DNA of 64,000 bases from Pelagibacterium halotolerans B2. GTDB lineage: Bacteria > Pseudomonadota > Alphaproteobacteria > Rhizobiales > Devosiaceae. Positions 23,323 through 32,187 of this stretch are shown here, piece by piece. The notes under the pieces are model-generated. The model was not told where the DNA came from. It saw only the letters and a program-made list of their open reading frames with translations, and ran no database searches. The stretch covers positions 2,937,001-3,001,000 of the forward strand of contig NC_016078.1 of the NCBI RefSeq assembly GCF_000230555.1, in the 5' to 3' direction. Numbering within the stretch: the stretch's first letter is position 1; every line of letters begins with the position of its first letter. A program made the translations under genes and the position numbers.

Positions 23323-24243
23323 TCAGGAAATCTGCAAAAAAACCCGCCGCACCGTCAAGCGCGAGGTGATCGCCGTCAGCCCGGCAATCACCAGCACGAC
23401 GCCCACGATCCCCAATATGCCGCTGATCCCCAGCGCGAACTGCCCGAACAGAACGCCCAGTTGCGCGCTCGATTGTTCGGGCACCACGGTGCTCATCGCC
23501 GTTCCGGCAATGATGAAGAAGACGATGGCCGCCAGCCCGCCCACCAGCCCGCCCTTGAGCCCGAGCAACAAAAACCGCCCCTGGAATTCCCCCGCGATGA
23601 ACGTGTTGGACGCCCCGATGAAATGGAGCACATCGACGATTTCCCGGTTGGTCGACATCGTCCCGCGCGTCGCGAACACGATGGCCAGCGCCGTCGCCAC
23701 AAGGATCAGCGCCAAAACCAGTATCCCCGACACGACGATCGTCCCCGCCATCGTGTTGAGCTGCACCCGCCAGGCCGCATGGGTTTCAAGCGTCGCTCCG
23801 GGAATGGCCGAAATCTCGCTTTCCAGCCGCGCGATATCGGCCGCATTGGGATCGGCAAGTTGCACGATCACCAGCCGCGGGATGGCGAGATCGGAAAGGT
23901 CCAGCCCCTGCCCCAGCCAGGGCGCCAGCAACTCTTCGCTCTCTTCGATCGAAACCACCCGCGCGCTCGCCACCCCCGGCACCGCTTCGGAAAGCGACAC
24001 GGCCAGCCGCAAATTGGATTCGATCACCTCCCCGTCGAGCGGGCGGATCTGGATGGTCAGCTCGCGCCCCACCTCGGCCGACCACCCCATCGCCGATTTC
24101 TGCACCAGCAGCACGCCGCCGAACGTCACGCAGGACAGAAACGTCATGATGCCGATGAGCAGCATCAGCGTGCGCCCCGCCACCGATTGCGCCGGAACGA
24201 TCGGATTGGGGCGGGAAAAATTGAGTTTCAGCCCCTCACTCAT
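23323..24243 (-). CDS. ftsX: Cell-division ABC transporter permease FtsX
   Basis: A 306-residue protein with one N-terminal helix (TLMLLIGIMTFLSCVTFGGV), an extracytoplasmic domain (ELTIQIRPLDGE ... ARLESEISAIPGATLE) and three C-terminal helices (VVSGILVLALILVATALAIV, GRFLLLGLKGGLVGGLAAIV, GISGILGIVGVVLVIAG). This matches FtsX, which with FtsE signals to periplasmic peptidoglycan hydrolases at the septum. The start at 24243 overlaps the ftsE stop by 8 bp, so the pair is translationally coupled. Confidence 0.92.
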   Translation of the reverse strand: MSEGLKLNFSRPNPIVPAQSVAGRTLMLLIGIMTFLSCVTFGGVLLVQKSAMGWSAEVGRELTIQIRPLDGEVIESNLRLAVSLSEAVPGVASARVVSIEESEELLAPWLGQGLDLSDLAIPRLVIVQLADPNAADIARLESEISAIPGATLETHAAWRVQLNTMAGTIVVSGILVLALILVATALAIVFATRGTMSTNREIVDVLHFIGASNTFIAGEFQGRFLLLGLKGGLVGGLAAIVFFIIAGTAMSTVVPEQSSAQLGVLFGQFALGISGILGIVGVVLVIAGLTAITSRLTVRRVFLQIS

Positions 24244-24895
24244 GGATGGTGAGCTCCCCTTCATTGAGCAGCATGCGCGGATAGGCGAACTTGTCGAGCA
24301 GCGCCACCTCGTGGGTGGCGAGGATGATCGTCGTGCCCATCTTGTTGAGCTGTTCGAACAGATGCAAAAGCCGCTCGGACAATTCGGGGTCCACATTGCC
24401 CGTCGGCTCGTCGGCCAGCAAAATGTCGGGATTGCCGATCACCGCCCGGGCAATCGCCGCGCGCTGTTTTTCCCCGCCCGAAAGCACCGCCGGATGCGCG
24501 TCCATCCTGTCGCCCAGCCCCACCCAGTCGAGCAATTCTTCCACATTGCCGCGATAGCTCGCTTCCGCCTGCCCGCGCACGCGCAGCGGCAGGGCGACGT
24601 TTTCGAAGGTCGTGAGATGATCGAGCAGCCTAAATTCCTGGAACACGATGCCGATATGGCGCCGCATCTGCAACAGCCTGTCGCGGTCGAGCGCCGAAAC
24701 GTCCTCCCCGAACATCGAGACGGACCCGCGCGTGGGCTTGAGCGAGAGCAGCAACAGCCGCAAAAGCGAAGTCTTGCCCGACCCCGAGGGTCCGGTGAGA
24801 AAATGAAACGAGCCCGGCGAGATCGCAAAGGTCAGGTCTTTGAGGATTTCCGGCCCGTGCCCGTATCGAAGGCCCACATTTTCGAACGCGATCAA
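24236..24895 (-). CDS. ftsE: Cell-division ATP-binding protein FtsE
   Basis: A 219-residue ABC ATPase: N-terminus MIAFENVGLRYGHGPEILKD, Walker A GPSGSGKTS, signature LSGGEKQRAAIARA and Walker B ILLADEPTGNVD. It energises the FtsEX complex at the inner membrane. It is the first gene of the ftsE-ftsX(-plsC) unit and diverges from the MJ0042 gene with 148 bp between the starts. Confidence 0.94.
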   Translation of the reverse strand: MIAFENVGLRYGHGPEILKDLTFAISPGSFHFLTGPSGSGKTSLLRLLLLSLKPTRGSVSMFGEDVSALDRDRLLQMRRHIGIVFQEFRLLDHLTTFENVALPLRVRGQAEASYRGNVEELLDWVGLGDRMDAHPAVLSGGEKQRAAIARAVIGNPDILLADEPTGNVDPELSERLLHLFEQLNKMGTTIILATHEVALLDKFAYPRMLLNEGELTIHE

Positions 24896-25043
24896 ACCGC
24901 TTTTCTCCGCGAATCACCCTGTTGCCGCCACTCTATCAGCCATCACCCCCCAATGGCCGCATCATGGCGGCGTTTCAAGAGTTTTAACCCGGCCCGCTTA
25001 GGGTCGGGGCACGGATTTTCGCTCAACCCCTTCGGTCCCGCGC

Positions 25044-25916
25044 GTGATTATCACCTGCCCCAATTGCCAGACGCGCTACAAGCTCGGCTCCGATGCCCTC
25101 AGCGCGGCCGGCCGGCAGGTCCAGTGCGCCGCGTGTTCCGAGCTCTGGTACGCGACCCCGAGCTTTCCCAAGCCCGCCGCCCCGCGCCGCGATCCCGAAC
25201 CCACCGACGATGAACTGATCTTTCGCGCCGACGCCGATACGCTGTTTTCCACCGCCGACGAGGAGATGCTCGACGCCTCCTTTCTGCGCGCCCAGCCTCA
25301 GTTCCGCGCCGAAAATCACGATCCCGGGCATCAGTCCCCCGCCGACAGCGAGCCGCCGTCCGACCCGATCGATGGGGGCTCCTCGATCGACACCGCCGGC
25401 AACCGCGCCCGCATCGAGGCGCTGGCCAAGCGGCGCAACGGCATGCTTGCCGCCCATCCCATCGCCCGCTTCCGCCGCTTTTTCCGCATCGTGCTTGGTG
25501 TGTTCATCGTGGCGGCGCTGGTCGCCGCCTTCGCCCTGCGCACCGAAATCGTCTCCGCCGTGCCCCAGCTCGATGGGCTCTATCGCCTTGTGGGGCTGGG
25601 AACAAATGTGGTCGGACTTGATTTTACCGAGATTAAGACTTTGCGAACCACGCAGGACGGAAGCCCCGCCATTATCGTCAACGCCAGGATCTCCAACGTG
25701 ACGAATCGCATAACCTACGTGCCATCGGTGCTCGTCAGCCTCCTCGATCAGGCCGGCGCCATTCTCTATGAATGGACGGTGACCCCGGCCACGCGCAACG
25801 TCCTGCCCGGCGATACCCTGGCCATCGACGCGCAACTGATCGGACCGCCCCAGGGCGTGACAAACATAAGACTGAGCTTCGTCGACGGCGCCAACGGCTC
25901 GCCGGCGGGGACCTGA
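25044..25916 (+). CDS. MJ0042-type zinc-ribbon membrane protein with DUF3426 domain
   Basis: A 290-residue protein starting at a GTG. The N-terminal zinc ribbon MIITCPNCQTRYKLGSDAL, then VQCAACSELWYA, supplies two CxxC pairs (residues 5-35). An acidic linker, one membrane helix near residue 155 (IVLGVFIVAALVAAFAL) and a C-terminal periplasmic DUF3426-like beta domain (INARISNVTNRITYVPSVLV) follow. Such proteins commonly lie next to ftsE and cpdR in alphaproteobacteria (general knowledge). The role is unknown. Confidence 0.85.
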   Translation: MIITCPNCQTRYKLGSDALSAAGRQVQCAACSELWYATPSFPKPAAPRRDPEPTDDELIFRADADTLFSTADEEMLDASFLRAQPQFRAENHDPGHQSPADSEPPSDPIDGGSSIDTAGNRARIEALAKRRNGMLAAHPIARFRRFFRIVLGVFIVAALVAAFALRTEIVSAVPQLDGLYRLVGLGTNVVGLDFTEIKTLRTTQDGSPAIIVNARISNVTNRITYVPSVLVSLLDQAGAILYEWTVTPATRNVLPGDTLAIDAQLIGPPQGVTNIRLSFVDGANGSPAGT

Positions 25917-25992
25917 AACGACCGGACAACAAGTCCATTCGAGCCAATCCAAAACGGCGCCTCGATGGTCTGAAGAATAAGGGTAGAGCCCC

Positions 25993-26397
25993 ATGGCACG
26001 CATACTGGTGGCCGAAGACGACGATAACGTCCGCGCCTTCGTAACCCGCGCCCTCGAAATGAGCGGCCACGACGTGATCGACGCCTCCGACGGCGGCCTC
26101 GCGCTGGAAATCGCCAATGAGCACAATGGCAATTTCGATCTTCTGGTCTCCGACATCAAGATGCCCGTCATGGACGGCATCGGCCTGGCCCTCGCCATCG
26201 GCGCCCAATACCCCGCCATGACCATCCTGTTGATGACCGGCTTCGCCGACCAACGCGAACGCGCCCACGGCCTGGACGCCCTGATCTACGACGTCCTGGG
26301 CAAACCCTTCTCGCTGGCCCAACTGATCGAAAAAGTCGACGACGCACTGGCGGGGAAACCGGCCGAGATTATTCCGCTGGCACGCTCGGCGCTGTGA
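25993..26397 (+). CDS. cpdR: CpdR-like single-domain response regulator
   Basis: A 134-residue receiver domain without an output domain. The acidic pocket AEDDD (residues 8-12), phosphoacceptor Asp54 in LLVSDIKMPVMDG, the Thr/Ser switch in LLMTGFAD and Lys in LGKPFSLAQL are all present. The sequence and its place after the MJ0042 gene match CpdR. In Caulobacter, unphosphorylated CpdR primes ClpXP to degrade cell-cycle regulators such as PdeA and directs CtrA proteolysis; the role here is inferred by family. Confidence 0.85.
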   Translation: MARILVAEDDDNVRAFVTRALEMSGHDVIDASDGGLALEIANEHNGNFDLLVSDIKMPVMDGIGLALAIGAQYPAMTILLMTGFADQRERAHGLDALIYDVLGKPFSLAQLIEKVDDALAGKPAEIIPLARSAL

Positions 26398-26454
26398 GCG
26401 TCGAGGCCGAACGGGGCCCTCGACCGCCCGGAACTGTCCCCGCCCTTCCCCTTC

Positions 26455-26520
26455 GTCGTCCTCGGGCTCGACCCGGGGACCCGCAACCCTTCCGCGTTCG
26501 CAAAGGAAATGGTTGTCACG
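26455..26520. repeat. Dispersed CTCGGGCTCGACCCGGGG-type repeat
   Basis: The block CGTCGTCCTCGGGCTCG, then ACCCGGGGACCCGCAA, resembles widespread alphaproteobacterial intergenic repeats with a central CCTCGGGC/GACCCGGGG partial palindrome. It lies between cpdR and the fusion gene. No other copy was found by eye in this window. Confidence 0.45.
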
Positions 26521-26586
26521 CGCCGGCGCGATTGTTCGACTGACAAAACAGCGCGAACGCCGCCCGCATTGATCGGAGGGGCGAAT

Positions 26587-26754
26587 ATGGCAAAATGGCC
26601 CAGAATCAATTTCGACCCGCGCATGGGCAGCTCGAGCCCGAATTCTGATTGGAATGACTTTGAAGTCGCCGCCTATGCCAGTCATCGCTGTTGCCGCGAT
26701 GACCGCTATCTTGTTCTGGAGCCTGAAACCGGTATTCGTCGCAACAATTGGTGA
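26587..26754 (+). other. Possible 55-codon leader ORF overlapping the fusion gene start
   Basis: The ORF starts MAKWPRINFDPRMGSS behind an excellent GGAGGGG site 5 bp from its ATG, and ends 100 bp inside the next gene in a different frame. The fusion gene's own start (26654 or 26675) has no comparable ribosome site. Translation of this ORF could therefore deliver ribosomes to the fusion start, or it may be chance. It resembles no protein I recognise. Confidence 0.35.
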
Positions 26755-29371
26755 TCGCGCGACCTTTGCCGAGATTTTCGTTGTCGCCGGGGCCATTGCT
26801 CTGATCTGCAGCCTCGCGGGTGCCGCCATTATGTGGCGCGACACACTCAGGCTCGTTCGCAGTCGAGCTGTATTCTATGGGGCTGCGAACGCGGTTGCGG
26901 CCGGTTTCTTTCTGGCGCTTTGGTACTACGGATTTTATCGCGGTCTCTACAACTCGCAGAAGGCTGACGTCACCATCATTGCGTTTACCTGGCCGCTGAT
27001 CGCCATATTCGCAATGCAGATCTTTGCACCGAGCCTGGCCAGGCGCCTTTCGCGCATGGAATTGTCGCTCGTTCTGGTCGCATTCTTTGGCGCCGTTGCC
27101 ATCGGCCTGGGGCGCCTGACAAGCCTCGATCTCACCGCCAACAGCGAGATATTGTTCGCATTTCTTGCCGCGTTCGGATCAGGCGTTTACCTGCCGTTCA
27201 GCCTCAAGGCGCTGATCGCGTTCGAGAACATCATTGGCTCCAAGGTCAAGGCAACCTTCTTCAGTGTCTCGCTCGCTAACGCCGCGGCGTTAGCGTTCGT
27301 GCTTTGCTATTTCGGGGCAACCGGACAACGGCTCTACTTTTACGCGTTCGATCCGACGGTCTGGGCCATCTGCGCGCTCATCGGGATCGGCACCTATCTT
27401 TTGGCCGAGATGACGTGGAACTGGGCCTTTACCGAGTTCAAGTCTCTCACCCTTTCCTCGCTCGTCTATTTTTCCCCTGCGCTCTCGGTCGTCTATCTCT
27501 ACGTGTTCTTTGACGTGCCCGTATCGTCGCTCTCGGTGTTCGGCCTGGTGCTGATCCTGTTCGCGAACATGACCCTCCATGGGCGATACCAGTTGAACAA
27601 CGCGCTGTTTTCGGCGCTGATCGGCACGCTTTTTGTGGCCCTTTGTTCATTTTTTGTTGTGCCGACCGACACACGATTTCTCACCGATCTGCTCTATTTC
27701 CTGTCGGGTGTCTTTGCCATTCTGGCCGGTTTCATTCTGAGCCGGGTCAGCGGGCGCAGAGCGCAGGAGATCGATGTCCGGTCCGATCTGGTTCGTAGCC
27801 TGCTTGAACTGCGCGACGGAGTGCAGGACAGGGACGACCTGATCGACACCCTGCTCCAATTGCTCATCGAAATCGAATTCACTCCCATTCTCGCCGAAAA
27901 GCAGAAAAGCGCTGTCGCATTCCGGGAAGGACTCAAGCAGATCGAGCCGTCGGAGCGGCTCCGTCAGACGCGGGCGGTTTTCGACCAATGGTACAACATT
28001 CACCGCGACCGCTTGTCGCTGGGGGAAAAGGCAGCCATTTGGCTCACAGGTGGCGGCAGTATCCTGTTCCTGGTGCTGGTGCGCGGTGACGACGTGCTCA
28101 GCCAGATCGGCGTGTTCATGCTCTCCGCCGGCATCTTGCTGGTGCTCTTTACGATCAGCGATTACGAAAAGAGCAATGTCCAGGGCTTCAGAAAACAGTT
28201 TCTGCGGCTTCAGGAAGGATTTTCCGAGCTTGGACGAACACTTTTCGTACCACGCTCGGTGGTCGAAAGCCGAGAGATCGGCAGTCTGGACGGCATCGAC
28301 ACCCTACGATTCCGCAATAACGCCGGGGAGATCGAAACCATATCGACCGGACGCGACCGGTCCGGCTTCCGCATAGTGTATTCGGGCACCGCTTTGCTCA
28401 TGCTCGGCGCCCTATTTGCACTTCCCCTGTCCTCCAGCGACTATTCAGGCAATCAGCTCGACCGCATCATAAGGCCCGGCGTAGCCAACACAGGGCTTCA
28501 ACTGCCATTCTTTTCCGATGAGAGCGACATCGTAATTGCCAGCTTCGCCTGGGACGCCAGCAAGGTGATTGCTGAAATCATCAGGCAGACCATCAGCGAC
28601 AGGCTCGGCTATTCGGCTGCAGTTCAGGAGGCGAACCTGAACGATGTCTTTGCTGCGATGGCCGACCCCAATGGCCGCATAGATGTCCACCCCGATTTCT
28701 GGCTGCAAAACCAGCCAGAAAACCTCATACGCTATGTGAGAAACGAAGGCAGCGTTGCCCTTAACACGCAAAGTTACGAAGGAACGCAGGGAATATACGT
28801 CGCCGCGCCGTTCCCCGAGGCTGTGACGCGGATTTCAGACCTCGCCAACGCTGCCGTGTCGGCACGATACGATACAAACGGCAACGGCAGGGGCGAAATA
28901 TGGATCGGTGCAGGCGACTGGCTCTCCACGGCCATCGTCAGGCAGCATCTGGAACGGTTCGAACTGGATCGGTTCTGGGATTTTGAGGTCTACGGAGAAA
29001 GCATCTTCCGGGCCAAGCTCGCCAGCTTCCAGGCACGCGGGGAATCGCTCGTGTTCTACGGCTATGAACCCGATTGGGTCCACGCCACATACAATACGAT
29101 CGAACTTGATTCAGCGTGCCCGGCCGATGAACCCAATGCAGACGGTGACTGCGAATTGGCAAGCGTCGATGTTCACGTGGCCTACAGCGCGGCGCTCGAA
29201 GAGGACATGCCCTCCGTGTCCCAACTGCTTTCACGCATCCGGTTCCGGGCGCAGGATTTGAACGCCTGGCTCAGCGCGACCGCCCGAAGCGGGGTCGCAC
29301 CAGAGGCCGTCGCCGCGCAATGGATCGCCGAGCACGAAACAATCGTTCAGGGTTGGCTCGAGGGTTCGTGA
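26654..29371 (+). CDS. Fusion: EamA/DMT-like transporter domain plus C-terminal OpuAC (glycine betaine-type) binding domain
   Basis: A 905-residue protein. Residues 8-308 have ten helices with EamA/DMT features (AVAAMTAILFWSLKPVFVAT, ITIIAF-type TIIAFTWPLIAIFAM, and LAEMTWNWAFTEFKSLTLSS). Two more helices follow (about 314-364), then a cytoplasmic helical region (365-455), two helices (460-503), a soluble stretch and a last helix (574-593). Residues about 600-905 match OpuAC/ProX binding domains: IVIASFAWDASKVIAEIIRQ, LGYSAAVQEANLNDVFAAMA, IDVHPDFWL, WIGAGDWLSTAIVRQHL and VFYGYEPDWVHATYN. Candidate aromatic cage residues are W633, W683, W756, Y804 and W808. About 15 helices put the binding domain in the periplasm. 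The gene looks less GC-rich than neighbours. No ABC partner is adjacent. Start may instead be ATG 26675. Confidence 0.8.
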   Translation: MTLKSPPMPVIAVAAMTAILFWSLKPVFVATIGDRATFAEIFVVAGAIALICSLAGAAIMWRDTLRLVRSRAVFYGAANAVAAGFFLALWYYGFYRGLYNSQKADVTIIAFTWPLIAIFAMQIFAPSLARRLSRMELSLVLVAFFGAVAIGLGRLTSLDLTANSEILFAFLAAFGSGVYLPFSLKALIAFENIIGSKVKATFFSVSLANAAALAFVLCYFGATGQRLYFYAFDPTVWAICALIGIGTYLLAEMTWNWAFTEFKSLTLSSLVYFSPALSVVYLYVFFDVPVSSLSVFGLVLILFANMTLHGRYQLNNALFSALIGTLFVALCSFFVVPTDTRFLTDLLYFLSGVFAILAGFILSRVSGRRAQEIDVRSDLVRSLLELRDGVQDRDDLIDTLLQLLIEIEFTPILAEKQKSAVAFREGLKQIEPSERLRQTRAVFDQWYNIHRDRLSLGEKAAIWLTGGGSILFLVLVRGDDVLSQIGVFMLSAGILLVLFTISDYEKSNVQGFRKQFLRLQEGFSELGRTLFVPRSVVESREIGSLDGIDTLRFRNNAGEIETISTGRDRSGFRIVYSGTALLMLGALFALPLSSSDYSGNQLDRIIRPGVANTGLQLPFFSDESDIVIASFAWDASKVIAEIIRQTISDRLGYSAAVQEANLNDVFAAMADPNGRIDVHPDFWLQNQPENLIRYVRNEGSVALNTQSYEGTQGIYVAAPFPEAVTRISDLANAAVSARYDTNGNGRGEIWIGAGDWLSTAIVRQHLERFELDRFWDFEVYGESIFRAKLASFQARGESLVFYGYEPDWVHATYNTIELDSACPADEPNADGDCELASVDVHVAYSAALEEDMPSVSQLLSRIRFRAQDLNAWLSATARSGVAPEAVAAQWIAEHETIVQGWLEGS

Positions 29372-29385
29372 GCGACGGACGACGC

Positions 29386-30666
29386 TCAATCCCCCGCCCG
29401 CACCCACTCCGGCACACTATCGAGCCCAATCAGCTCATCCAGCGTCTGCCGTGGCCTCACCACATGCCACTTCCCGCCCTCGACGAGCACTTCGGCGATC
29501 AGCGGGCGGGTGTTGTAGGTCGAGCTCATCACCGCGCCATAAGCGCCCGCGCTCATCACCACCAGTAGATCGCCCTCGGCCACCTCCGCCATCTCCCGGT
29601 CGAGCCCGAGATAATCGCCCGTCTCGCACACCGGCCCCACGATATCGGCGCGAATGGTGTTGGCCCCCGCCCCCGCTTCCTGCATGGGCAGAATATCGTG
29701 ATGGGCCTCGTAAAGCGTGGGGCGGATCAGATCGTTCATCGCCGCATCGACGATGACAAAGCTCTTTTTGTCGGTCTTTTTGACATATTCGACCCGCGTC
29801 ACCATCACCCCGGCATTGCCCGCGATCAGCCGGCCCGGTTCAAGGATCACCTTGCACCCCAGCGGATCGGTATGCCGCCGCACCAGCTTGGCATATTCCA
29901 CCGGATCGGGCGGGGGTGAATTGTCCTGTTGGTACGGTATCCCCAGCCCGCCCCCGACATCGACATGGCCGATGTCATGCCCCGCCGCCCGCAGCCGTCC
30001 GACCAGTTCGGCCAGCAGCTTAAAGGCGTTGTCGAACGGTTCGAGTTCGGTGATCTGGCTGCCGATATGCATATCGACGCCCACCGCCTTCAAATTCTTG
30101 CACGCCGCGATCCGTCCATAGACCGCCTCGGCCCGCGCGTAGGGAATGCCGAACTTGTTTTCCGATTTGCCCGTCGAAATCTTGGCGTGGGTTTTCGCGT
30201 CCACATCGGGATTGATCCGCACCGAGACCGGCGCGATCCTGTCCATCTCGGCGGCCACCGCGTTGAGCCGTTCCAGTTCGGGTTCGCTTTCGACGTTGAA
30301 ACACAGGATTCCCACGTCCAGCGCCCGCCGCATCTCGGCCCGGCTCTTGCCGACCCCCGAAAAGATGATCTTTTGCGCCGGTATCCCGGCCCGCAGCGCC
30401 CGCTCCAATTCTCCCAGCGACACCACATCCGCCCCGATGCCCTTTTGCGCGGCAATCGCCAGCATCGCCTGGTTGGAATTGGCCTTCATGGCATAGGCGA
30501 CCAGCGTGTCGGTGCCCGAAAACGCGTTCATCATCACCTCGATATGCCGGGTGAATGTCGCCTGCGAATAGCAATAGAACGGCGTGCCGATCTCCTCGGC
30601 CACCGCCGTCAGATCGACATCCTCGGCAAACATCCAGCCGCCGCGATAGGTAAAATGATGAACCAT
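29386..30666 (-). CDS. lysA: Diaminopimelate decarboxylase
   Basis: A 426-residue PLP enzyme of the alanine-racemase-fold decarboxylases. The PLP lysine is in YAMKANSN; then come GADVVSLGELERAL, the phosphate-binding DVGGGLGIPY, EPGRLIAGNAG, and the CETGDYLG active-site cysteine region. It makes L-lysine from meso-DAP in the cytoplasm, the last lysine step. The ATG at 30666 (MVHHFTYRGG) is the family start; the frame is open to 30699. It is downstream of argH on the same strand, a frequent arrangement in this group. Confidence 0.94.
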   Translation of the reverse strand: MVHHFTYRGGWMFAEDVDLTAVAEEIGTPFYCYSQATFTRHIEVMMNAFSGTDTLVAYAMKANSNQAMLAIAAQKGIGADVVSLGELERALRAGIPAQKIIFSGVGKSRAEMRRALDVGILCFNVESEPELERLNAVAAEMDRIAPVSVRINPDVDAKTHAKISTGKSENKFGIPYARAEAVYGRIAACKNLKAVGVDMHIGSQITELEPFDNAFKLLAELVGRLRAAGHDIGHVDVGGGLGIPYQQDNSPPPDPVEYAKLVRRHTDPLGCKVILEPGRLIAGNAGVMVTRVEYVKKTDKKSFVIVDAAMNDLIRPTLYEAHHDILPMQEAGAGANTIRADIVGPVCETGDYLGLDREMAEVAEGDLLVVMSAGAYGAVMSSTYNTRPLIAEVLVEGGKWHVVRPRQTLDELIGLDSVPEWVRAGD

Positions 30667-30715
30667 TATATCGTCCAAATCCAAAATCGGCGGCGCCAAT
30701 CCAACTCAAGCACCC

Positions 30716-30780
30716 GCCCTTTGAGCCCCTTCGCCCCGCCGGGGAGAAGGGACGGGGATGAGGGGCCGCATCGGCCACGC
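30716..30780. repeat. Palindromic intergenic repeat between argH and lysA
   Basis: The block GCCCCTTCGCCCCGCCGGGG, then AGAAGGGACGGGGATGAGGG, contains a CCTTC..CCCCGCCGGGG..GAAGG hairpin. It is related in style to the CCCTCTCCCC..GGGGAGAGGG repeats at 34.8 kb. It is probably an intergenic repeat rather than a terminator, as no T run follows. Confidence 0.5.
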
Positions 30781-30804
30781 CGATGCGTCAGCCAAGGGCC
30801 CAAA

Positions 30805-32187
30805 CTAATTCCCCAGCCGCTCGCGCCAGCCCGCAACCTGCGCCATGACGTTTGCCGGCGCCGTCCCGCCGAAACTCGTCCGCGACTTGACCGAATTGTC
30901 CACCCCCAGCACCTTGAACACCTGGGAGGTGATCCGCTCGTCGATCTCCTTGAAATCCTCGATGGTCAGCCCTTCCAGCCCGCAGCCCTTTTCCTCCGCC
31001 GCCGCCACCGCGCGCCCGGTGATGTGATGGGCATCGCGGAACGGCACGTTGGCCGCCCGCACCAGCCAGTCGGCCAGATCGGTCGCCGTCGAAAACCCGG
31101 CCCCCGCCGCCTGTGCCATCTTCTCGCGGTTGACGGTCAGATCCCCCATCATCCCGGTCATCGCCGCCAGCGCCAGCGAGAAATTGTCGAGCGCGTCAAA
31201 CGCGATTTCCTTGTCTTCCTGCATGTCTTTCGAATAGGCCAGCGGCAGCCCCTTCATCACCATCAGAAGCGATGTGAACGCAGCAAAGATCCGCCCCACC
31301 TTGGCCCGGATCAGCTCCGCCGCATCGGGATTGCGCTTTTGCGGCATGATCGAGGACCCGGTCGAAAACTTGTCGGAAAGCTTGACGAAAGCAAACTGCG
31401 CCGACGACCAGATCACAAGCTCTTCGGAAAGCCGCGACAGATGCATCGCGCAGATCGACGCCGAAGACAGCGTCTCCAGAATAAAATCCCGGTCCGACAC
31501 CGCGTCGAGCGAATTGGCCATCGGCCGGTCGAACCCCAGCGCCTCTGCCGTCATCTCCCGATCGATCGGAAACGATGTCCCCGCCAGCGCCGCCGCCCCG
31601 AGCGGGCTTTCATTGAGCCGCGCCCGCGCATCGAGCAGCCGCCCCTTGTCGCGCTCGAGCATTTCCACATAGGCCAGCATGTGGTGCCCGAAGGTCACCG
31701 GCTGGGCGCTCTGCAGATGGGTAAACCCTGGCATAACGGTTCCCGCTTCGGCCTCGGCCTTGTCCACCAGAACCTTCTGCAGCGTCTCGACCTGCGCCGC
31801 CAGCATATCGAGCGCGTCACGCACATAGAGCTTGAAATCGGTCGCCACCTGGTCGTTGCGCGAGCGCGCCGTGTGCAGCCGCCCGGCCGGCTCGCCGATC
31901 AGCTCTTTCAACCGGCTTTCCACATTCATGTGGATGTCCTCGAGCGCTCGCGAGAAGGTGAACGCACCCGCCTCGATTTCCCCCCGAACGGTCTCTAGAC
32001 CCGAGACGATGGCGTCCTTATCGTCGCGCGTCAGAATGCCGGCTGCCTCCAGCATTGTCGCATGCGCTATCGATCCGGCGATGTCGTGCTTGTAAAGGCG
32101 CTTGTCGAAGCCGATAGAAGCGTTGATCTCTTCCATGATGGCGTCGGGGCCGGACGAAAACCTGCCTCCCCACATGCGATTGCTCAT
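30805..32187 (-). CDS. argH: Argininosuccinate lyase
   Basis: A 460-residue fumarase/aspartase-superfamily enzyme. Signatures in order are [20 protein letters not shown] at the N-terminus, [19 protein letters not shown], the TGFTHLQ-like [17 protein letters not shown] and the family motif [11 protein letters not shown]. Length is normal. It splits argininosuccinate to arginine and fumarate, the last step of arginine synthesis. It diverges from the TlpA gene with a 39-bp gap. Confidence 0.95.

What the first reader, a model, noticed from the sequence alone, without database searches (positions are those of the whole stretch)
26654..29371. Single-chain fusion of a DMT-type transporter and an OpuAC betaine-type binding domain
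One 905-residue protein joins a 10-12-helix EamA/DMT-like region, a further three-helix linker and a C-terminal ProX/OpuAC-like binding domain with several tryptophans in cage-like positions. OpuAC domains normally serve ABC transporters. DMT proteins normally act without a binding protein. The odd helix count puts the binding domain in the periplasm, tethered to a secondary transporter. If real, it is a self-contained osmolyte or quaternary-amine uptake (or sensing) protein of a kind I do not know described. There is no ABC gene nearby.
Basis: partly seen in the sequence, partly recalled or inferred. Interest (0 to 1): 0.82.

Follow-up and report, generated by a model that had tools for sequence, protein, structure and literature searches.

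The report
Transporter, channel-like module, binder in one
One bacterial protein joins a membrane carrier, a module shaped like a bestrophin ion channel and a betaine/choline-type binding domain in a single chain; it is probably a self-contained uptake machine for small methylated amines, which is untested.

Summary
ORF 26654-29371 (+, 905 aa) is one uninterrupted protein: a 10-helix EamA/DMT carrier, a middle part, and a C-terminal ProX/TmoX-type OpuAC domain outside the membrane. It is no assembly error: 43 of 47 database relatives have the same order; the other 4 end in out-of-frame or adaptor-like tails. The 'three-helix linker' is more: TM11-14 with two cytoplasmic segments fold like a bestrophin and match the Pfam 'Bestrophin-like' family PF14023 by profile comparison (96%, E 4e-9; 0 of 200 shuffles as good), though no Pfam model hits it. 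TM15 then places the binding domain outside. The DMT half resembles, in fold, the choline importer LicB among other DMTs; 42 of its residues are invariant in 44 fused and 15 stand-alone sequences, so it is probably still a carrier. The aromatic cage of TmoX/ProX is kept. The gene sits alone at a variable cpdR-lysA junction. Best reading: a binding-protein-fed secondary importer for betaine/choline/TMAO-like solutes on a bestrophin-like scaffold; function untested. Such a non-elevator partner would test a published hypothesis about binding-protein-dependent secondary transport.

The parts
26654..29371 (+). whole gene, 905 aa: DMT carrier + bestrophin-like module + TM15 + ProX/TmoX-type binding domain (stop codon included)
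   Evidence: same order in 43 of 47 relatives
26675..27586 (+). residues 8-311: 10-helix EamA/DMT carrier module
27587..28273 (+). residues 312-540: bestrophin-like module (TM11-14 and two cytoplasmic segments)
27719..27733 (+). residues 356-360: I356 and F360, aligned with bestrophin neck positions I66 and F70 of KpBest numbering
   Evidence: register taken through PF14023 and E. coli YneE; invariant in 44 of 44; neck residues from PMC6591409 and PMC8496536
28364..28435 (+). residues 571-594: TM15, takes the chain out of the cytoplasm
28436..28516 (+). residues 595-621: flexible tether (pLDDT under 50 at 595-622)
28517..29368 (+). residues 622-905: extracytoplasmic ProX/TmoX-type substrate-binding domain
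28550..28552 (+). W633, cage residue (TmoX W55, ChoX W43)
   Evidence: W in 44 of 44
28700..28702 (+). W683, cage residue (TmoX W102, ChoX W90)
   Evidence: W in 44 of 44
28919..28921 (+). W756, cage residue (ProX W140, TmoX W177)
   Evidence: W in 44 of 44
29057..29065 (+). Y802 and Y804, cage residues (TmoX F220 and W222; ProX W188 = Y804)
   Evidence: Y802 in 44 of 44, Y804 in 43 of 44

Best explanation
A self-contained, binding-protein-fed secondary importer for small quaternary or trimethylated amines (glycine betaine, choline, TMAO or a close analogue). Shown here by computation: the chain has three modules, a 10-helix DMT carrier whose fold is near that of LicB, a bestrophin-like four-helix module with cytoplasmic helices, and, after TM15 and a flexible tether of about 27 residues, a ProX/TmoX-type binding domain outside the membrane. 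Inferred: the binding domain catches the solute in its aromatic cage and hands it to the outward-facing DMT carrier, which moves it in by alternating access driven by an ion gradient or by the charge of the solute. The bestrophin-like module makes the assembly oligomeric (probably a pentamer, as in bestrophins), so that five binding domains and five carriers cluster round one axis; it may also conduct or sense ions.
Against: No transport or binding datum exists. The DMT fold is shared by exporters, importers and exchangers; the LicB match is a fold match only, and no sequence match to LicB was seen. Stand-alone DMT relatives lack the binding domain, so it is not needed for whatever the carrier does there. 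Published binding-protein-dependent secondary transporters are, or are modelled as, elevators (PMC12344293), which DMTs are not known to be (recalled). A channel-like module is not needed for an importer. The genes I looked at around it (24000-32000, by eye) are housekeeping-like and point to no substrate. TmoX F106 falls on Q687 here, and TmoX E122 was not placed, so the ligand may differ.
Confidence: 0.5

Rival explanations
1. Ligand-gated channel: the outer binding domain senses betaine-type solutes and gates a pore formed by the bestrophin-like modules of five chains; the DMT module is an auxiliary carrier or ligand supplier.
For: Bestrophin fold and PF14023 profile match; I356 and F360, aligned with neck residues I66 and F70 of the Na+ channel KpBest, invariant in 44 of 44; TM12 is among the most conserved parts (mean identity 0.82 at 351-375).
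Against: The first neck position is a glycine (G352), and the register is reached only through PF14023; a direct comparison with PF01062 bestrophins finds nothing (hhalign 0.2%; 0.1% global). Conductance of PF14023 proteins is not established in anything we read. Oligomeric state not tested. Does not explain why the DMT core is kept so strictly.
Confidence: 0.18
2. Transceptor or osmosensor: the protein mainly reports external osmolyte to the cytoplasm through its two cytoplasmic segments, transport being secondary.
For: Large cytoplasmic segments with invariant residues (W446, D503, Y504, P533); position after a response-regulator gene.
Against: No known output domain matched in the middle; no partner gene; the response regulator belongs to the ancestral junction, present in 13 of 13 genomes of the genus, not to the insert.
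Confidence: 0.1
3. Exporter or exchanger of quaternary amines, the outer domain capturing or retaining the released solute, or working as a regulatory cap.
For: Weak NCBIfam matches of stand-alone relatives, all far under cut-off, include exporters and amine carriers (YddG, 2A78, qac_SMR); several DMTs export (recalled).
Against: ProX-type domains serve import in every case known to us (recalled); LicB imports (PDB title; PMC13385700).
Confidence: 0.1
4. Sequencing or gene-calling artefact joining neighbouring genes.
For: None beyond rarity: 1 of 385, 397 and 398 genomes of class, order and phylum samples, which overlap.
Against: 43 relatives from many contigs with the same order.
Confidence: 0.01

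Closest known systems
TAXI-GltS systems (Bordetella pertussis BP0403 with GltS; fused forms in Lachnospiraceae), PMC12344293
   Same: A substrate-binding domain joined to a secondary transporter in one chain; tethering makes sense in Gram-positives without a periplasm
   Different: Different binding-protein family (TAXI), different carrier (GltS, modelled as an elevator), no bestrophin-like module described in the passages seen
TRAP and TTT transporters
   Same: Binding-protein-dependent secondary transport (proposed here)
   Different: Unrelated membrane parts; binding protein usually a separate chain (recalled)
OpuA of Lactococcus lactis (ABC importer with fused OpuAC domain)
   Different: Our chain has a DMT carrier and no ABC permease match; OpuA is an ABC importer
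LicB choline importer (DMT)
   Different: No sequence match found; LicB is a stand-alone carrier
ProX / TmoX / ChoX binding proteins
   Different: Free periplasmic proteins of ABC importers (recalled); here one cage Trp is Tyr and the domain is membrane-tethered
Bestrophins (PF01062) and Bestrophin-like family (PF14023)
   Same: Fold of the middle module; profile homology to PF14023; two of three neck positions
   Different: No Pfam-level match; no direct profile match to PF01062; embedded between a DMT and a binding domain

Membership tests
DMT / EamA (PF00892) | EamA model match over its cut-off | tested here: inconclusive
   This protein 18.9 bits, under 28.2; 7 of 9 relatives scanned are over it; 37 of 40 rows of A4 match at E<=10
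DMT / EamA (PF00892) | 10-helix DMT fold | tested here: met
   (TPT 24.9, LicB 22.7, SLC35B1 21.9, 5i20 19.0)
DMT / EamA (PF00892) | carrier activity | not testable with these tools
   only indirect: 42 residues invariant in fused and stand-alone forms
OpuAC / ProX binding proteins (PF04069) | sequence model and fold | tested here: met
OpuAC / ProX binding proteins (PF04069) | aromatic cage for the quaternary ammonium group | tested here: met
   W633, W683, W756, Y802, Y804 at TmoX/ProX/ChoX positions, kept in 43-44 of 44
OpuAC / ProX binding proteins (PF04069) | part of an ABC importer | tested here: inconclusive
   fused to a DMT; nearest PF00528 permeases 26 kb away; other relatives' neighbourhoods could not be seen
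Bestrophin (PF01062) | Pfam model match | tested here: not met
   not among the 25 families shown (of 28) for 40 rows at E<=10, nor in the middle piece itself; hhalign 0.2% local, 0.1% global
Bestrophin (PF01062) | bestrophin fold, four helices with N and C ends in the cytoplasm | tested here: met
Bestrophin (PF01062) | pentamer with a hydrophobic neck (IIF or IFF) | tested here: inconclusive
   G352/I356/F360 at the neck positions, register through PF14023; pentamer not testable here
Bestrophin-like (PF14023) | profile homology | tested here: met
   hhalign 96.1%, E 3.6e-9 (one comparison), against 31 members; global 96.9%; once-reversed, DMT and OpuAC profiles E>=0.01; 0 of 200 shuffles as good
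Bestrophin-like (PF14023) | Pfam model match over cut-off | tested here: not met
   not among the 25 families shown of 28 found at E<=10, nor in the middle piece itself
Binding-protein-dependent secondary transporter | transport that needs the binding protein | not testable with these tools
   architecture only
Binding-protein-dependent secondary transporter (TRAP, TTT, TAXI-GltS) | elevator-type membrane partner | tested here: not met
   membrane partner has the DMT fold; that DMTs are not elevators is recalled

The most novel reading that the evidence does not exclude
A pentameric machine in which one polypeptide supplies carrier, channel and receptor: betaine-type ligand bound outside both feeds the DMT carriers and gates a bestrophin-like ion pore on the common axis, so that osmolyte uptake and ion flux are coupled in one complex. 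No such carrier-channel-receptor fusion is known to us.
Probability: 0.15. Interest if true: 0.95.

Novelty: new variant of a known kind. Interest (0 to 1): 0.8.

Why it matters
PMC12344293 asks why binding proteins serve so few secondary transporters, suggests that the elevator mechanism may be required, and says that further classes would allow this to be tested (passages). A conserved, natural fusion of a ProX-type domain with a DMT carrier would be such a class, with a partner that is not an elevator. It also puts a bestrophin-like module into a presumed solute uptake protein, which gives the PF14023 family a functional setting to test. It is one gene of 2.7 kb, simple to express. Several relatives carry the database name 'glycine betaine ABC transporter substrate-binding protein' or similar, so annotation hides the architecture.

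Tried and rejected
Artefact or split genes: rejected. Middle as a plain linker: rejected. Canonical bestrophin membership by sequence: not met. First attempts at the PF14023 comparison were poor: one search picked wrong reading frames for 3 of 5 loci, and with 5 sequences gave 77%; one search used 31 of the 34 PF14023 loci (L093 dropped for its length; L104 and L105, under cut-off, not used). Bestrophin family PF01062 itself rang in 0 of 61 relatives and in 0 of 14 control genomes, so that search shows nothing; E. coli YneE and 11 plasmid copies were used instead. Sequence match of the DMT part to LicB: none (best was 5i20 at E 0.21). Neighbourhoods of other fused relatives could not be fetched: the genome-contig scan gave three loci that match only in the OpuAC part, the viral scan nothing, and of 25 plasmid records none holds a fused copy, one a stand-alone DMT. 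A try to find a Rhodobacterales handle through a Paracoccus protein led nowhere. Repeats at the insert ends: none convincing.

Rows dropped before counts: A1 holds 36 of the 41 relatives (without P0007, P0021, P0024, P0041, P0042); the fused set holds all 43 plus this protein. P0057, P0062 and P0065 were left out of the stand-alone set as short or from very short contigs, P0007 and P0042 as pieces of fused proteins. The tree lacks P0021 and P0024 and includes the DMT part of P0048. The genome searches with A2 scored only the best 5 candidates per genome.

Literature: 10 searches of open-access PMC, of which I saw the listings (at most 25 rows). EamA+OpuAC+fusion, and substrate-binding + drug metabolite transporter + fused + glycine betaine, gave 0 papers. 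No search paired bestrophin with OpuAC or DMT; subscription papers were not searched. Papers seen as passages found by terms: PMC12344293 (plus abstract), PMC13385700, PMC11923154, PMC4570203, PMC10087775, PMC2861598, PMC6591409, PMC5655127, PMC8496536; other papers only in listings.

Full report
Observation. The reading frame 26654-29371 (+) is open for 905 codons. Pfam finds OpuAC at residues 625-893 (E 5.4e-34) and a sub-threshold EamA match (18.9 bits, cut-off 28.2); NCBIfam's best hit is ProX (49.9 bits, cut-off 215). Of 9 relatives scanned, 7 pass the EamA cut-off.

Not an artefact. Two searches of 5.8 billion proteins gave 47 relatives. 43 align through DMT, middle and OpuAC (P0013 stops inside OpuAC); 4 lack OpuAC, and their tails are out of frame (P0007, P0041, P0048) or adaptor-like (P0042; that such a tail is a common artefact is recalled). 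In an alignment of 37 the others are 38-95% identical to this protein. The DMT half also exists alone: 19 hits, of which 14 were used (46-54% identity), and one on a Tsukamurella tyrosinosolvens plasmid (46.5% over residues 25-309). In a tree of 58 DMT domains, 9 of 15 stand-alone forms lie outside the fused group and 6 inside it (5 changes of state; midpoint root, so direction is unsure). This suits one fusion followed by losses of the tail.

Rarity and arrival. Of 61 genomes (the own one and 60 relatives) the full protein is only in the own one; the matches in 39 others fall in the OpuAC part, residues 598-905. The DMT profile at E<=1e-30 hits only the own genome in samples of 385 (class), 397 (order) and 398 (phylum) genomes, which overlap and in which 5 candidates per genome were scored. 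In the window it lies between a CpdR-like response regulator and a LysA-like gene (names recalled from sequence). In 4 of 12 congeners these two genes abut or overlap slightly; in 5 other DNA of about 1.3-5.2 kb lies between them (in one of these only the 3' end of lysA was seen); in 3 lysA was not found in the stretch fetched; none of the 12 stretches shows the fusion. The gene has 56-59% GC, the flanks mostly 60-68% (a few windows of the flanks shown are under 60). So it probably came in alone, with no partner gene. The nearest ABC import permeases are 26 kb away.

Topology. Hydropathy and the model give 15 transmembrane helices. With helix ends set by hand, over 37 sequences the loops assigned inside carry 0.10-0.41 K+R per residue, those outside 0-0.19; loops 31-35 (out, 0.19) and 255-263 (in, 0.10) do not discriminate; the OpuAC domain has about 24 K/R against 51 D/E. 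Overall this agrees with N in, C out.

Binding site. HMM alignments to ProX, ChoX and TmoX, numbered (ProX counted by eye), put W633, W683, W756, Y802 and Y804 on TmoX W55, W102, W177, F220 and W222, residues listed for TmoX in PMC10087775. They are kept in 44, 44, 44, 44 and 43 of 44 sequences. Of the other two TmoX residues listed, F106 falls on Q687 and E122 was not placed. W683 on ProX W65 is inferred; that alignment did not reach it. A loop DTNGNG (DxDGDG in most relatives; Ca-loop-like by recall) is shared with E. coli ProX.

Carrier. 42 DMT residues are invariant in 44 fused and 15 stand-alone sequences, among them W22, K25, W90, Y91, Y95, R96, W113, D233, E252, W255 and W257. A module that had become a mere anchor would not be expected to keep them.

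How it may work. Catch outside, hand-over to the DMT, release inside; coupling ion unknown; the bestrophin-like module as an oligomerising scaffold, possibly a pore. Only the architecture is shown; the substrate class is suggested by the cage; transport direction, coupling, oligomeric state and conductance are inferred. In actinobacteria, without a conventional periplasm, a tethered binding domain makes sense, as the TAXI-GltS authors argue for their firmicute fusions.

Known or new. PMC12344293 (abstract and passages) states that before it only TRAP and TT transporters were known to use soluble binding proteins among secondary transporters, adds TAXI-GltS, and suggests that an elevator mechanism may be required. 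My searches of the open-access library showed no paper on a DMT-OpuAC fusion (listings only); none was made for a bestrophin-OpuAC fusion. I rate it a new variant of a known kind (binding-protein-dependent secondary transport) for the best reading; the carrier-channel-receptor reading would be categorically new.

Noticed in passing
window 26397-29386 and loci L036, L039-L041, L051-L058: The cpdR-lysA junction of this genus is a variable site: the genes abut in 4 of 12 congeners and hold different DNA in 5 (among it a methyl-accepting-like protein, a phospholipase-D-like protein, a serine hydrolase with IS66-like and LysR/SDR genes, names recalled).
   Followed up: partly
L051 6137-6313 and 7831-8001: Two partial copies of the lysA 3' end, 90% and 95% like the window's LysA, on either side of a serine-hydrolase-like gene: possible trace of how the site takes in DNA.
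   Followed up: no
L028 7959-8900: A stand-alone DMT relative on a Tsukamurella plasmid, among FtsK/SpoIIIE, ParB-like and integration-host-factor genes, with no OpuAC gene annotated in the 16.9 kb shown.
   Followed up: partly
window 26587-26754: A short open frame (within the 26509-26754 ORF) whose ATG at 26587 follows GGAGGGG and which overlaps the start of the fusion gene in another frame; by eye the fusion's own start has no clear ribosome site. Possibly translational coupling.
   Followed up: no
PF14023 loci L072-L103: Bestrophin-like PF14023 and canonical bestrophins PF01062 are linked by profile comparison (hhalign 91.8%, E 7.5e-7), which supports the Pfam name.
   Followed up: partly
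G000:C1:323701-324561, 2267003-2267824, 3032100-3032933: The same genome has three further OpuAC matches outside the window. Two lie within 1.5 kb of a PF00528 permease on the same strand (324912-325397; 2265773-2266336) and look like ordinary ABC systems; the third (3032100) has none within 19 kb.
   Followed up: partly
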